This document shows, piece after piece, positions 2,570 through 45,591 of a stretch of 64,000 bases of DNA. Below the pieces are notes generated by a model. It saw nothing but the letters and a program-made list of their open reading frames with translations. It ran no database searches and had not been told where the DNA came from. Both the position numbers and the translations under genes were made by a program. The stretch comes from Streptomyces sp. NP160 (GTDB lineage: Bacteria > Actinomycetota > Actinomycetes > Actinomycetales > Quadrisphaeraceae): positions 1 through 64,000 of the forward strand of contig NZ_VDMJ01000020.1 in assembly GCF_006335115.1 (NCBI RefSeq). The letters run 5' to 3'. The first letter of the stretch is position 1, and each line of letters begins with the position of its first letter.

Positions 2570-2607
2570 GTAACCTGCCCGAAATGCCGGCGTCACAAGC
2601 CGGAGAC
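2570..2607 (+). promoter_or_regulatory. GlnR operator of glnA (four half-sites)
   Basis: Four 5-mers repeat at exact 11-bp steps: GTAAC at 2570, GAAAT at 2581, GTCAC at 2592 and GAGAC at 2603. This is the alternating a-site (gTnAC) and b-site (GaAAC) pattern with 6-bp gaps described for actinobacterial GlnR. It lies about 70 bp before the glnA start and just upstream of a TAGCGT hexamer, where GlnR would act under nitrogen limitation. Confidence 0.85.
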
Positions 2608-2617
2608 GCGTGCTCCC

Positions 2618-2623
2618 TAGCGT
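2618..2623 (+). promoter_or_regulatory. Probable glnA -10 element
   Basis: TAGCGT lies 10 bp after the GlnR box and about 53 bp before the glnA ATG, leaving a leader of roughly 45 nt that contains the GAGGAGGG ribosome-binding site. The -35 region would lie inside the GlnR box. Confidence 0.5.
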
Positions 2624-2676: not shown

Positions 2677-4101
2677 ATGTTCAAGGACGCGAACGAGGTC
2701 ACCAGGTACATCACCGACAACGACGTCAAGTTCGTCGACGTCCGTTTCTGCGACCTGCCCGGCGTGATGCAGCACTTCAACGTGCCCGCCGCCACGGTCG
2801 ACGAGGACTTCTTCACCGAGGGCCAGATGTTCGACGGATCCTCGATCCGCGGCTTCCAGGCCATCAACGAGTCGGACATGAAGCTGGTGCCGGACCTCGA
2901 CACCGCCTACGTCGACCCGTTCCGCGTCGAGAAGACGCTGAACATCAACATGCACATCGTCGACCCCATCACGGGCGAGCCGTACAGCCGCGACCCGCGC
3001 CAGATCGCGGCGAAGGCCGAGGCCTACCTCAAGAGCACGGGCATCGCCGACACGGCGTTCTTCGCGCCGGAGGCCGAGTTCTACATCTTCGACGACGTGC
3101 GCTTCAAGACCTCCCAGCAGGAGGCCTACTACCACATCGACTCCATCGAGGCCGCGTGGAACACCGGTCGCGTGGAGGAGGGCGGCAACCGCGGGTACAA
3201 GACGCCCTACAAGGGCGGCTACTTCCCGGTGCCCCCGACGGACCACTACTCCGACCTGCGCGACCAGATGAGCCTGGCGCTCGACGCGCAGGGCCTCGGC
3301 GTGGAGCGCGCCCACCACGAGGTGGGCACCGCCGGCCAGACCGAGATCAACTACCGGTTCGACACGCTCGCCAAGTCGGCCGACAAGATCATGCTGTTCA
3401 AGTACATCATCAAGAACGTGGCCTGGCAGGCGGGCAAGACCGTCACCTTCATGCCCAAGCCGCTCTTCGGTGACAACGGCTCGGGCATGCACGTCCACCA
3501 GTCGCTGTGGAAGGACGGCTCGCCGCTCTTCTACGACGAGTCCGGCTACGGCGGCCTGTCCGACACCGCCCGCTGGTACATCGGCGGCCTGCTCCACCAC
3601 GCGCCGTCGCTGCTCGCCTTCACCAACCCGACGGTGAACAGCTACCACCGCCTGGTCCCGGGCTACGAGGCCCCCGTGAACCTCGTCTACTCGGCGCGCA
3701 ACCGCTCCGCCTGCGTGCGCATCCCGATCACGGGCTCCAACCCCAAGGCCAAGCGCATCGAGTTCCGCGTGCCGGACCCGTCGTGCAACCCGTACCTGGC
3801 GTTCTCCGCGATGCTGCTCGCCGGCATCAACGGCATCCAGAACCGGATCGAGCCGCCGGACCCGGTGGACAAGGACCTGTACGAGCTGCCGCCCGAGGAG
3901 CACGACGCCATCGCGCAGGTGCCGGGCTCGCTCGGCGCCGTCCTCGACGCGCTCGAGGAGGACCACACGTACCTGACCGACTCGGGGGTCTTCACCGAGG
4001 ACCTCATCGAGACCTGGATCGAGTACAAGCGGAAGAACGAGATCGACCCGATCCGCTTCCGCCCGCACCCGCACGAGTTCGAGATGTACTACGACATCTG
4101 A
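2677..4101 (+). CDS. glnA: Glutamine synthetase type I
   Basis: 474 aa, the usual length for GSI-beta; it condenses glutamate and ammonia with ATP in the cytoplasm. Visible motifs are [10 protein letters not shown] near residue 50, the EAEFYIF metal site, [15 protein letters not shown], and the ATP-site block ending [35 protein letters not shown] follows. The adenylylation loop [10 protein letters not shown] places Tyr402 as the likely site for GlnE. The start is the ATG after GAGGAGGG; reading further upstream would cross the promoter. Four GlnR half-sites lie upstream, and a strong hairpin follows the stop. A second, type III synthetase occurs at 42.2 kb. Confidence 0.98.
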
Positions 4102-41481: not shown

Positions 41482-41541
41482 CCCGCCGCCCCGGAGGCGG
41501 GGAGGCTGGTGCGCCCGGTCGAGCTGCGGGAGGGTCGAGCC

Positions 41542-42078
41542 GTGCGCCGTGTCGTCATCTACCAGCTGCTGTCGCTCGACGGGGTCGCGGAGTCCCCTGA
41601 CCGCTTCTTCGACTGGGACGACGTCCTCGACGCGAACCTCGCCGACGTCATCTCCTCCCAGGACGCCGTGCTGCTGGGCCGCCGCTCGTACGACGAGTGG
41701 GCGCCGTACTGGCCCACCAGCGACCTCGAGCCCTTCGCGACCTTCATCAACGGCGTGACCAAGCACGTGGTCACGTCCTCACCCCTCGAGCCGGCGTGGT
41801 CCGGCGCCTCGGCCGTCGAGGGCGATCCGGTCGCCTTCGTGCGCACCCTGAAGGAGACCGACGGGGGCGACATCGGCGTGCACGCCAGCACCACCCTGGC
41901 GCGGGCGCTGCTGGCGGCAGGCGTCGTCGACGTCCTGAGGCTCGTGGTGGCGCCGGCGGTGGCGGGCAGCGGCGCGCGGCTGCTGGACGGCGTCGCGACG
42001 GTCCGCCTGGAGCTGGTGCGCAGCGAGGCCTCCCCCAGCGGGCACCTCGTCCTCGACTACCGCGTCCTGGCCGGCTGA
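41542..42078 (+). CDS. Dihydrofolate reductase-like (RibD C-terminal) protein
   Basis: 178 aa. RRVVIYQLLSLDGVAESPDRFF, DAVLLGRRSYDEWAPYWP, TKHVVTSSPLEP, DIGVHASTTLARALLAAGVVDVLRLVVAPAVAGSGARLL. This YyaP/YwjB-like NADPH-binding family is common in actinobacteria; function is open. GTG 41542 after GGGAGGGTCGAGCC. The upstream GTG 41509 lacks a ribosome-binding site. Confidence 0.9.
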   Translation: MRRVVIYQLLSLDGVAESPDRFFDWDDVLDANLADVISSQDAVLLGRRSYDEWAPYWPTSDLEPFATFINGVTKHVVTSSPLEPAWSGASAVEGDPVAFVRTLKETDGGDIGVHASTTLARALLAAGVVDVLRLVVAPAVAGSGARLLDGVATVRLELVRSEASPSGHLVLDYRVLAG

Positions 42079-42099: not shown

Positions 42100-42148
42100 G
42101 TCACAGGAACGACCCACGACCGGAACGCTCGCGAAACACCGCCGAGAC
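42100..42148 (+). promoter_or_regulatory. Degenerate GlnR box upstream of glutamine synthetase III
   Basis: Five 5-mers at exact 11-bp steps: GTCAC (42100), GACCC (42111), GGAAC (42122), GAAAC (42133), GAGAC (42144). The first and fourth fit gTnAC and GaAAC exactly; others are weaker. Same phasing as the glnA box. Confidence 0.55.
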
Positions 42149-42224
42149 GCGGGGCGCCTACGGTCTCGGTCGCGCTTGACAGCGGCTCCGACCAGCGGGG
42201 CCGCGCCCACCTCGAGGAGAACGC

Positions 42225-44402
42225 ATGAGCGGCAGCGCCGCCCGCCTGGACGCCATCAACGCCGTCAAGTCCTACGTGCCGCCGGCGCCGTCGTTCGCCG
42301 CGCACGAGGCTCCCGGTGAGATCTTCGGGCAGAACGTCTTCTCCCGCGACGTCATGCAGGCCCGCCTGCCCAAGGCCGTGTTCCGCTCGGTGATGGCCAC
42401 CATCGAGTCCGGCGCCAAGCTCGACCCGAGCGTCGCCGACGCCGTGGCCTCGGCCATGAAGGACTGGGCGATGGACCGGGGCGCCACGCACTACGCCCAC
42501 GTCTTCTACCCGCTGACCAACCGCTCGGCCGAGAAGCACGACAGCTTCCTGGAGCCGGACGGCGTGGGCTCCTCGATCGCGGAGTTCGCCGGCAAGACCC
42601 TGGTGCAGGGCGAGCCCGACGCGTCCAGCTTCCCCAACGGCGGCCTGCGCTCCACCTACGAGGCTCGCGGCTACACCGCCTGGGACATCACCAGCCCGGC
42701 CTACATCCTCGAGAACGCCAACGGCAACACGCTCTGCATCCCCACGGTCTTCGTCTCCTTCACCGGCGAGGCGCTCGACCTCAAGGCCCCGCTGCTGCGC
42801 TCCCAGCGCGCCATGGCCGACCAGGCCAAGCGCGTGCTGGCCCTGTTCGGCCACATCGAGCCCGGCAACATCGTCAGCTTCGCCGGTCCCGAGCAGGAGT
42901 ACTTCCTGATCGACCGCAGCTTCTCGCTGTCCCGCCCGGACCTGCTGAACTGCGGCCGCACCCTCTTCGGCGCCAAGCCCCCCAAGGGCCAGGAGTTCGA
43001 CGACCACTACTTCGGGTCCATCCCCGACCGCGTCCTGGCGTTCATGCTCGACGCCGAGCGCGAGCTGTTCAAGCTGGGCATCCCCGCCAAGACCCGTCAC
43101 AACGAGGTCGCACCCGGGCAGTTCGAGATCGCCCCGATGTTCGAGCAGGCCAACCTCGCTGCTGACCACCAGCAGCTGCTGATGGTCACCATGCGCAAGG
43201 TGGCCCAGCGCCACGGCATGGAAGTGCTCTTCCACGAGAAGCCCTTCGCCGGCGTCAACGGCTCCGGCAAGCACGTGAACTTCTCCTTCGGCGGCGGCAG
43301 CGTCGGCAACCTGCTGCTCCCGGGCGACACCCCGCACGACAACGCCCAGTTCCTCGTGTTCTGCGCCGCCGTCATCCGCGCGGTGCACCTGCACGGCGGC
43401 CTGCTGCGCGCGTCGGTGGCCTCCTCCACCAACGACCACCGCCTGGGCGCCAACGAGGCCCCGCCGGCCATCATCTCGATCTTCCTCGGGGACCAGCTGG
43501 CGGACGTCTTCGACCAGGTCGCCAAGGGCGGTGCCACCTCCTCCAAGGAGAAGGGCACCCTGATGATCGGCGTCGACACCCTGCCGGTGCTGCCGACCGA
43601 CCCGGGCGACCGCAACCGGACCAGCCCCTTCGCCTTCACCGGCAACCGCTTCGAGTTCCGCGCGCCTGGCTCCCTGCAGTCGATCGCCCCGCCGATGATC
43701 ACCATCAACACGATCGTCGCCGAGTCGCTCGACCACGTGGCCACCGAGCTGGAGGCCAAGCTGGCCGGCGGTGAGGACTTCAACACCGCGGTGCAGAAGG
43801 TGCTGGAGCAGATCGTCTCCGACCACGGCGCTGTGATCTTCAACGGCGACGGCTACTCCGACGAGTGGCAGGTGGAGGCCGCTGCCCGCGGCCTGAAGAA
43901 CCTCAAGACGACGCTCGACGCGCTGCCGGAGCTCATCACGCCCGAGGCGCTGGAGCTCTTCTCCAAGTACGGCGTGCTGTCCGAGCAGGAGTCGCACAGC
44001 CGCTTCGAGGTGGCCCTGGAGCAGTACGCGCTCTCCGTGGGGGTCGAGGCGAAGCTGTCCCTGGAGATCGGCTCGACGCTGGTCCTCCCGGCGGCCGTGC
44101 GCTACCAGACCGAGCTGGCCCAGAACGTGGCCGCGCTCAAGGCCGCCGGCGTGGAGGCGGACACCTCACTGCTCACGGCGGTGTCGGAGCCGCTGGCGGC
44201 GCTGCGCTCCGCCGTCGCCGAGCTGCGCACCGCGGTGGCGCACCACCCCGACGGCGGATCGGCCGGTCACGCCCTGTACTCGCGGGACACCCTCCTGCCG
44301 GCGATGGCGGCGGTCCGCGCCGCCGCCGACGAGCTGGAGACCGTGGTGGCCGACGACCTGTGGCCGCTGCCGACCTACCAGGAGATGCTCTTCATCCTCT
44401 GA
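42225..44402 (+). CDS. Glutamine synthetase type III
   Basis: 725 aa, the size of GSIII (GlnN). Family blocks: [52 protein letters not shown] (metal), [55 protein letters not shown]. Makes glutamine from glutamate and ammonia. No GlnE-type Tyr loop is seen. ATG 42225 follows GAGGAGAACGC. A degenerate GlnR box lies upstream, so it may serve under nitrogen stress beside glnA. Confidence 0.95.
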
Positions 44403-44412
44403 CGGGCGGACC

Positions 44413-44448
44413 GGTGCTCGCACCCGCAGGCTGGCGGGTGTGAGCACC
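44413..44448. terminator. Hairpin after glutamine synthetase III, overlapping next start
   Basis: 15-bp arms (44413-44427 and 44434-44448) with one mismatch and a 6-nt loop. The right arm includes the GTG start (44440) of the SDR gene. The CAGGCT at 44427-44432 would start the SDR RNA inside the hairpin, so that transcript has no hairpin. Confidence 0.6.
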
Positions 44449-45591
44449 CACACCCCCGCACCCGCACCCGCACCCGCACCCGGCGCAGTCCCCGTCGAGC
44501 TCGCCGAGACCGCCGCGTCCGACCTGTCCGCACCGCCGTCCGAGCGCGGCGTGGCGGTGGTCACCGGCGGCTCGGCGGGAATCGGCCGCGCCGTGGTGCG
44601 GGAGCTCGCCGCGCGCGGCTGGGACGTCGCGGTGCTCGCGCGCGGGCGCGACGGCCTGGCCGGTGCCGTGGCCGACGTCGCCGGAGCAGGACGACGCGGG
44701 CTCGGGCTGGTGTGCGACGTCGCGCACCGCGAGCAGGTCGAGGCCGCAGCCACCCGCGTGGAGGCCGAGCTGGGCCCCGTCGAGGTCTGGGTCAACAACG
44801 CCATGGCGAGCGTCTTCGCCCCCTTCTCCGACACCGACCCCGACGACTTCGAGCGCGCCACCGCCGTCACCTACTTCGGCCAGGTGCACGGCACCCGCGC
44901 CGCACTGGAGCGGATGCGCCCCCGCGACCGCGGCCACGTGGTCCAGATCGGCTCGGCGCTGGCCTTCCGCGGCATCCCCCTGCAGGCGGCCTACTGCGGC
45001 GCCAAGCACGCCGTCGTCGGCTTCACCGAGTCGGTCATCACCGAGCTGCGCCACGAGGGCAGCCGCGTGCAGGTGTCGATGGTCCACATGCCGGGCATGA
45101 ACACCACGCAGTTCGGGTGGGTGCGGACCACCGAGCCGAAGCACCCCCAGCCGGTGGCCCCGATCTGGCAGCCGGAGGCCTGCGCCAAGGTGGTGGCCGA
45201 GGTGGTCGACCACCCGCGCCGCCGGACGTGGGTGGGCGAGTCGACCGTCTACACGATCCTCGGCAGCTGGGTCGCCCCGTGGTTCGTCGACAGGTACCTG
45301 GCGCGGACCGGTGTGGACGGGCAGCTCACCGACCAGCCCCGGTCCACCATGCGGGGCGACTACCTGGACGCCCCCGTCCCCGGGGACGCCGGGGCGCGCG
45401 GCGAGTTCGACGACCAGTCGTGGAGCTGGAGCCCGCAGGTGTGGCTGCAGCAGCGCCGGCACGCCGTCGACGTGGTCGGCACCGCCGCGCTCGCCCTCGG
45501 GGCCGTCACCGCAGCGGCCGCCGCCTCAGCGTCCGTCAGGCGCCGGCGCGGCACCCCCGCCGCCCGCGTCCAGCGGTGGCTGGGGCGGTGA
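44440..45591 (+). CDS. SDR oxidoreductase with C-terminal membrane segment
   Basis: 383 aa. After a PAPAPAPAP N-terminal tract (encoded by cacccg repeats), the cofactor motif VVTGGSAGIGRAVV appears near residue 40. The active site is IGSALAFRG with YCGAK. At the C-terminus, VVGTAALALGAVTAAAAASA is a membrane segment followed by RRRRG, so it is likely membrane anchored. Substrate is probably lipid-like. CAGGCT lies 7 nt before GTG 44440, so leaderless. Confidence 0.88.
   Translation: MSTHTPAPAPAPAPGAVPVELAETAASDLSAPPSERGVAVVTGGSAGIGRAVVRELAARGWDVAVLARGRDGLAGAVADVAGAGRRGLGLVCDVAHREQVEAAATRVEAELGPVEVWVNNAMASVFAPFSDTDPDDFERATAVTYFGQVHGTRAALERMRPRDRGHVVQIGSALAFRGIPLQAAYCGAKHAVVGFTESVITELRHEGSRVQVSMVHMPGMNTTQFGWVRTTEPKHPQPVAPIWQPEACAKVVAEVVDHPRRRTWVGESTVYTILGSWVAPWFVDRYLARTGVDGQLTDQPRSTMRGDYLDAPVPGDAGARGEFDDQSWSWSPQVWLQQRRHAVDVVGTAALALGAVTAAAAASASVRRRRGTPAARVQRWLGR

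What the first reader, a model, noticed from the sequence alone, without database searches (positions are those of the whole stretch)
42100..42148. 11-bp phased GlnR-like repeats before glutamine synthetase III
Five words GTCAC, GACCC, GGAAC, GAAAC and GAGAC follow at exact 11-bp steps. This suggests that GSIII, whose regulation in actinobacteria is less studied, belongs to the same regulon as glnA.
Basis: partly seen in the sequence, partly recalled or inferred. Interest (0 to 1): 0.6.

Follow-up and report, generated by a model that had tools for sequence, protein, structure and literature searches.

The report
GlnR-type nitrogen switch before glutamine synthetase III
The repeated DNA words in front of this type III glutamine synthetase gene look like a real docking site for GlnR, the master nitrogen regulator of actinomycetes, and the same arrangement is kept in front of the same gene in most related bacteria compared, so this enzyme very probably belongs to the nitrogen-starvation response.

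Summary
Confirmed, and stronger than claimed. The five words lie exactly at 42100, 42111, 42122, 42133 and 42144, before an intact GSIII gene (42225-44402). Words 3-5 plus a -10 box (CCTACGGT, 42157-42164) form the functional-looking core. The genome encodes a GlnR orthologue. Its own glnA, also in this window, has the same layout: words at 11-bp steps, the last one starting 15 bp before the TA of the -10. Among GSIII promoters from GlnR-encoding genomes, 41 of 52 (plus 6 of 6 in the genus) reach 7 of 8 positions of a published GlnR motif, against 4.4 of 52 in shuffles. In 45 of these 47 a -10 sits in phase with the lattice. Promoters of 49 non-actinobacteria and 8 GlnR-less genomes stay near the shuffle level, though one GlnR-less draft keeps a convincing box. 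PhoP boxes are not enriched; MtrA, which binds GlnR boxes in Streptomyces, is not excluded. In three of six congeners the glnA box is missing or degraded while the GSIII box is kept. This is a new target of a known regulator; ten paper searches showed no report of it in what I saw. Binding and expression are untested.

The parts
42100..42104 (+). word 1 GTCAC (outer a-type word; GTCAC or GTTAC in 4 of 6 genus members, lost in 2)
42111..42115 (+). word 2 GACCC (invariant in 6 of 6 genus members but lacks A4; role unexplained)
42122..42126 (+). word 3 GGAAC, a-site of the conserved core (invariant 6 of 6)
42133..42138 (+). word 4 GAAAC(A), b-site of the conserved core (GAAACA or GTAACA in 6 of 6)
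42144..42148 (+). word 5 GAGAC, third word of the core, next to the -10 (GAGAC, GAGAT or TGAAC in 5 of 6)
42157..42164 (+). probable -10 region CCTACGGT (TACGGT hexamer 42159-42164), TA 26 bp after the start of the b-site
   Evidence: CCTAnnnT in 6 of 6 genus members; TANNNT at +26 in 32 of 47 orthologue sites
42214..42219 (+). probable ribosome binding site GAGGAG
   Evidence: sequence; kept in the 6 aligned genus members
42225..44402 (+). GSIII (glnN) coding region, 725 aa
   Evidence: ORF; PF12437, PF18318, PF00120; matches PDB 3o6x over residues 32-723
2570..2623 (+). comparison promoter of glnA (GSI, ORF read from ATG 2677 to 4101): GTAAC 2570, GAAAT 2581, GTCAC 2592, GAGAC 2603, -10 region CCTAGCGT 2616-2623
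   Evidence: lattice score 11 of 12; TIGR00653 match at 2695-4095

Best explanation
A GlnR-binding promoter element of the GSIII gene. GlnR, an OmpR-type regulator, would bind head to tail on 11-bp direct repeats, with one dimer on GGAAC-n6-GAAACA (words 3-4) and a further subunit on GAGAC (word 5), possibly extended upstream over words 1-2. The array covers the place where a -35 box should be and ends 8 bp before CCTACGGT, so GlnR probably replaces a missing -35 and recruits RNA polymerase, switching GSIII on when nitrogen is short. Shown: the words, their spacing to the -10, conservation across genera, the GlnR gene, the matching glnA promoter. Inferred: binding by GlnR, the direction (activation), the trigger (nitrogen limitation) and the oligomer count.
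For: GlnR orthologue in the genome: 79% identity to an S. coelicolor GlnR piece recalled from memory, and PDB matches led by 8hih, 8hig, 8hml, 4o1i and 4o1h, the last named 'Transcription regulator GlnR'. The published motif Gn2AC-n6-GnAACA (PMC3662644, passages) is matched 8/8 in 6 of 6 genus members and at 7/8 or better in 41 of 52 other promoters from GlnR-encoding genomes; 40 shuffles of the 52 give mean 4.4, max 10, and other spacers 1-18. In 45 of the 47 sites a TANNNT lies at +15, +26, +36 or +37; 0.25 of 47 is expected at any one offset. Consensus of 27 non-redundant cores: GTnAC-n6-GnAACA-n5-GnCAC-n8-CCTAnnGT (cores were chosen for 6/8 motif positions and a TANNNT at +26, so those columns are favoured by the choice). 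Same layout at own glnA. An 8/8 site lies about 1.5 kb upstream of the P-II gene in 5 of 5 other genus members, where amtB is expected; amtB itself was not checked. Within the genus the words of the core stay while spacers drift. In 49 non-actinobacterial GSIII promoters 5 reach 7/8 (3.7 expected), none 8/8, and none has the site at the -10 distance.
Against: No binding or expression data. GACCC (word 2) lacks A4. 11 of 52 promoters from GlnR-encoding genomes score below 7/8; several are mycobacterial ones with a weaker TTGAC/GTAACG version that does sit at the -10 distance, but L012, L015 and L168 have no convincing box. G081, a 94% complete draft without GlnR, has a convincing box (7/8, -10 in place). 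Spacer controls are not all low: n4 gives 18 of 52, and n8 gives 5 of 6 at 7/8 in the genus, though none at 8/8 there. In M. smegmatis only glnA1 and glnA2 of at least ten annotated GS genes were GlnR-controlled (PMC3662644, passages); whether it has a GSIII was not checked. The own glnA matches only 6 of 8 motif positions, although its lattice scores 11 of 12.
Confidence: 0.87

Rival explanations
1. The box is read mainly by MtrA, which recognises GlnR boxes in Streptomyces and represses nitrogen genes in rich medium. GSIII would then be chiefly MtrA-repressed, or GlnR and MtrA would compete.
For: MtrA's recognition sequence is highly similar to GlnR's and it represses nitrogen genes (PMC9045223, passages). 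The own genome has 12 further, weaker matches to the GlnR query, so an MtrA-type protein is likely; it was not identified.
Against: No 8/8 site in 8 promoters from genomes without a GlnR orthologue. This is a small number, and MtrA presence was not scored, so it is indirect.
Confidence: 0.08
2. A PHO box: PhoP binds 11-nt direct repeats and GSIII is under phosphate control.
For: PHO boxes are also 11-nt direct repeats (GTTCACC) and PhoP competes with GlnR at glnA in S. coelicolor (PMC6988585, passages).
Against: The best two-repeat GTTCACC match averages 8.66 of 14 against 8.32 in shuffles; 0 of 58 reach 12; own 9. The b-words carry AA at positions 3-4, the GlnR form.
Confidence: 0.02
3. Chance: a GC-rich window offers many GNNAC-like words and the reader picked a lucky row.
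For: A 12-bp-step control gives one equally high lattice elsewhere in the window; 4-word lattices at 11 of 12 occur 0.88 times per shuffled window.
Against: The orthologue conservation and the lock to the -10. The sites are not all copies of one another: of 42 cores, 27 remain when cores of 75% identity or more to one already kept are dropped.
Confidence: 0.01
4. Transcription starts from another promoter, e.g. the TTGACA at 42177-42182, and the array is a relic or a distant operator.
For: TTGACA is a perfect -35 hexamer and is kept in 3 of 6 genus members.
Against: No recognisable -10 17 bp after it; it is not kept in G008, G011 and G012, whereas CCTAnnnT after the array is kept in 6 of 6.
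Confidence: 0.04

Closest known systems
GlnR boxes of actinomycete glnA, amtB-glnK-glnD and nir/nas promoters (S. coelicolor gTnAc-n6-GaAAc; M. smegmatis Gn2AC-n6-GnAACA)
   Same: Word type, 11-bp phasing, coding strand, nitrogen gene, GlnR in the genome; same spacing of last word to -10 as own glnA.
   Different: Target is GSIII, not named in the passages and the one section of the 2023 review that I read (PMC10704036; 'glnN' 0 occurrences in its main text). Five words here, one of them (GACCC) off-consensus.
PHO boxes of PhoP
   Same: 11-nt direct repeats; PhoP overlaps GlnR sites at glnA in S. coelicolor.
   Different: GTTCACC repeats are not enriched here.
MtrA sites
   Same: Highly similar consensus; MtrA binds GlnR-type sites.
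   Different: Not distinguished here by sequence; MtrA represses nitrogen genes.
GSIII (glnN) of cyanobacteria and Bacteroides (PDB 3o6x)
   Same: Same enzyme family over residues 32-723.
   Different: Cyanobacterial glnN is ammonium-repressed (PMC9397018, passage), through NtcA as I recall; here an unrelated regulator appears to do a similar job.

Membership tests
GlnR box / GlnR regulon promoter | a-site GnnAC, 6 bp, b-site GnAAC(A) | tested here: met
   8/8 at 42122
GlnR box / GlnR regulon promoter | direct repeats at 11 bp, in tandem | tested here: met
   five words at exact 11-bp steps; in the 52 orthologue promoters spacer n6 gives 41, spacers n2-n5 and n7-n11 give 1-18
GlnR box / GlnR regulon promoter | A at position 4 of each word | tested here: inconclusive
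   4 of 5 words; GACCC fails
GlnR box / GlnR regulon promoter | GlnR encoded in the genome | tested here: met
   G000:C127:712-1374
GlnR box / GlnR regulon promoter | conserved in orthologous promoters where GlnR exists and missing where it does not | tested here: met
   7/8 or better in 6 of 6 and 41 of 52, versus 2 of 8 without GlnR and 5 of 49 non-actinobacteria, the last two near shuffle means 0.70 and 3.67; one GlnR-less draft (G081) keeps a convincing box
GlnR box / GlnR regulon promoter | GlnR binds it in vitro | not testable with these tools
   needs EMSA or footprint
GlnR box / GlnR regulon promoter | gene responds to nitrogen and to glnR deletion | not testable with these tools
   needs RNA data
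GSIII (GlnN) | GSIII_N, catalytic and C-terminal domains over cut-off, about 725 aa | tested here: met
   PF12437 247.5 bits (cut-off 25), PF18318 132.4, PF00120 75.1; 3o6x E 3.6e-185
GSIII (GlnN) | glutamine synthetase activity | not testable with these tools
   needs assay
PHO box (PhoP) | two or more GTTCACC repeats at 11 nt | tested here: not met
   own 9 of 14; 0 of 58 reach 12
MtrA site | MtrA binding | not testable with these tools
   consensus similar to GlnR's

The most novel reading that the evidence does not exclude
In this genus GSIII, not the housekeeping GSI, is the glutamine synthetase that must stay under GlnR. The GlnR box at glnA looks lost in G011 and G012 and degraded in G008, while the GSIII box is kept in all six species: a hand-over of nitrogen control between two unrelated glutamine synthetases. 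More widely, GSIII would be a regular, so far unlisted, member of the GlnR regulon wherever actinomycetes carry it, joined to it by a promoter whose 11-bp lattice is locked in phase to the -10.
Probability: 0.35. Interest if true: 0.55.

Novelty: new member of a known kind. Interest (0 to 1): 0.45.

Why it matters
GSIII is patchy in actinomycetes (31 of 394 class genomes, 11 of 138 genera), and I saw nothing on its control there. This gives it a likely role (ammonium assimilation under nitrogen limitation) and a ready test promoter. The lattice locked to the -10 across genera is a clean comparative data set for how GlnR meets RNA polymerase. A missing glnA box beside a kept GSIII box lets one ask whether GSIII has taken over from GSI.

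Tried and rejected
PhoP as reader of the box: rejected by score. Chance: rejected by conservation, although the window-only test is moderate and a 12-bp-step control gave one equal hit.

Operon of GSIII and glnA as the reason for glnA box loss: in the own genome they lie about 38 kb apart, so this cannot apply there. In 6 of 30 class genomes GSIII lies just upstream of glnA on the same strand (coordinates). The gap could be read in three (G057, G223, G354; 195-238 bp); G057 and G354, and perhaps G223, show box-like words of glnA's own there. The script did not find the GSIII stop in the other three.

Other own-genome hits of the three-word pattern (5 besides this one) were fetched, but the genes near them were not named; the reversed control gave 2, so some are chance.

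Literature: four paper searches paired GSIII or glnN with GlnR and six others touched the subject. I saw titles and starts of abstracts of the listed papers (in only part of the hits were listed) and passages of seven papers. None of that reports GSIII as an actinomycete GlnR target. The library lacks most subscription journals.

Rows left out or set apart: L025 (no upstream sequence) was dropped from the promoter counts; L071 (GlnR match only partial, at a contig end) is its own group and scores 8/8. glnA loci were scanned over about 260 bp, the six genus members over 700 bp. Of 36 glnA promoters 26 reach 7/8; own, G008, G009, G011 and G012 do not.

Full report
Observation. The five words are present at 42100, 42111, 42122, 42133 and 42144, in the 146-bp gap between a RibD_C-domain gene (41509-42078, +) and a 725-aa ORF at 42225-44402 (+). 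The ORF is a complete GSIII: PF12437 247.5 bits, PF18318, PF00120; it aligns to PDB 3o6x over residues 32-723. As an isolated pattern the array is rare but not overwhelming: 1.5% of 200 shuffled windows hold a lattice as good anywhere, and a 12-bp-step control found one such lattice in the real window.

The regulator is present. A match to S. coelicolor GlnR (recalled piece) lies at G000:C127:712-1374, 79% identity. PDB matches include 8hih over residues 2-220 and 4o1h, named GlnR. Of 67 genomes behind GSIII loci that were searched, 58 have a near full-length GlnR orthologue (64% identity or more, E 4e-84 or lower). The other nine show none at that level: G081, the genomes of L021, L071 (68% identity but only residues 2-108, at a contig end) and L072, and five whose record titles name Conexibacter, Solirubrobacter or Solirubrobacterales.

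The neighbour that serves as control. glnA (GSI) lies in the same window (TIGR00653, 680 bits, 2695-4095). Its promoter reads GTAAC-n6-GAAAT-n6-GTCAC-n6-GAGAC-n8-CCTAGCGT; the GSIII promoter ends GGAAC-n6-GAAAC-n6-GAGAC-n8-CCTACGGT. A scan of the whole window for four words at 11 bp (11 of 12 or better) returns only these two promoters. In the five other genus members an 8/8 site lies about 1.5 kb upstream of the P-II gene, where amtB is expected; amtB was not checked.

Orthologues. All 6 genomes of the genus carry a full-length GSIII and none of 7 other family genomes does (they give only weak partial matches); in the class 31 of 394 genomes have GSIII_N. I compared 220 bp upstream of GSIII from 6 genus members, 52 promoters of other GlnR-encoding genomes, 8 from genomes without a GlnR orthologue, 1 with a partial GlnR and 49 from non-actinobacteria (by record title). 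Against the motif published for M. smegmatis (Gn2AC-n6-GnAACA; PMC3662644, passages), at least 7 of 8 positions are met in 6 of 6, 41 of 52, 2 of 8, 1 of 1 and 5 of 49. Shuffle means are 0.45, 4.42, 0.70, 0.07 and 3.67. All 8 positions are met in 6, 16, 0, 1 and 0. Changing the spacer to 2-5 or 7-11 drops the 52-promoter count to 1-18, the 18 being n4; in the genus n8 gives 5 of 6 at 7/8, none at 8/8. Of the two GlnR-less promoters at 7/8, G081 (a 94% complete draft) has a convincing site with the -10 in place, so its GlnR gene may be in a gap.

Promoter geometry. Measured from the start of the b-site, a TANNNT lies at +26 in 32 of 47 sites, and at +15, +26, +36 or +37 in 45 of 47, that is, on about the same 11-bp lattice; 0.25 is expected at any one offset. 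A site of 6/8 or better at the +26 distance is found in 36 of 52, 6 of 6, 1 of 8 (G081) and 0 of 49. In one genus label (g60, 9 genomes, all with a site of 7/8 or better) only 1 of 9 has that geometry; the +36 cases (5 of 47) probably belong here. Thinned to 27 cores, the consensus is GTnAC nnnnnC GnAACA nnnnn GnCAC nnnnCnTn CCTAnnGT, with the motif and TANNNT columns favoured by the way cores were chosen. glnA promoters show the same lock, mostly one word further out: 26 of 36 reach 7/8, +37 in 15 of these 26, 22 of 26 locked with a slightly wider offset set.

Within the genus. Word 3 and the CCTA of the -10 are identical in 6 of 6, word 4 is GAAAC or GTAAC, and the 6-bp spacers drift; word 5 and word 1 vary; GACCC is invariant although it lacks A4. 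For glnA, own, G009 and G010 keep four words (11-12 of 12). G008 has changes in words 2-4, and G011 and G012 have an unrelated sequence; the best lattices within 700 bp are 9 (at -359, away from the promoter), 8 and 8 of 12. On the 17-bp motif the picture is less sharp: own 6, G010 7, G009 6, G008 6, G011 5, G012 5 of 8. All six keep 10-11 of 12 before GSIII. Loss is the likelier reading, since 26 of 36 glnA promoters of the set have a site, but no tree was built and gain is not excluded.

Mechanism, with its steps marked. Shown by sequence: array, spacing, conservation, regulator gene. Inferred: GlnR binds as a head-to-tail dimer on words 3-4 with a further subunit on word 5; since no good -35 lies 17 bp before TACGGT (that stretch is inside words 4-5), GlnR stands in for the -35 and activates. 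In S. [quoted passage not shown] its section on binding sites), so activation is the likelier direction.

Literature. The 2023 GlnR review (passages and one section read) has no 'glnN' in its text. The M. smegmatis ChIP-seq study states that glnA1 and glnA2 but none of eight other GS homologues are GlnR-controlled (PMC3662644, passages). Gordonia sp. TD-46 has a GSIII_N gene, with no occurrence of GlnR in that paper (PMC13203658, passages). MtrA recognises GlnR-like sites and represses nitrogen genes (PMC9045223, passages). Ten paper searches showed no report of GSIII as an actinomycete GlnR target in the listings and passages I saw.

Verdict. A real and conserved GlnR-type promoter; a new target of a known regulator. 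The less expected part is the missing or degraded glnA box next to a kept GSIII box in half of the genus.

Noticed in passing
L130, L131, L133 (glnA upstream of G008, G012, G011): The GlnR lattice before glnA is degraded in G008 and absent in G011 and G012, while all three keep it before GSIII. On the 17-bp motif alone G008 scores as the own glnA does (6/8).
   Followed up: partly
42111-42115: GACCC is invariant in 6 of 6 genus members although it lacks the A4 said to be essential for GlnR; it also appears in phase as a third word in G168, G231 and G075. Unexplained.
   Followed up: no
G057, G065, G097, G223, G299, G354 (loci L167/L206, L180/L203, L181/L199, L177/L211, L166/L207, L160/L200): GSIII lies directly upstream of glnA on the same strand in 6 of 30 class genomes (coordinates); glnA seems to keep its own box in at least G057 and G354.
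   Followed up: partly
L152-L155, L157, L007, L011, L013 and other mycobacterial or similar loci: Many of these GSIII promoters read TTGAC-n6-GTAAC-n6-G(G/C)CAT-n8-CCTA, often with a TTG start codon; several have GCATT one step upstream.
   Followed up: partly
42177-42182: A perfect TTGACA hexamer downstream of the array, kept in own, G009 and G010 only, without a clear -10 after it.
   Followed up: no
G000 (own assembly): No P-II (GlnK) match in the own draft, while the 5 other genus genomes have one; probably an assembly gap.
   Followed up: no
G121 (C117 and C114): Two GSIII copies in one genome, with boxes of 6/8 and 7/8.
   Followed up: no
44440-44500: The short-chain dehydrogenase after GSIII begins with a Pro-Ala repeat (PAPAPAPAP) coded by a short DNA repeat.
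   Followed up: no
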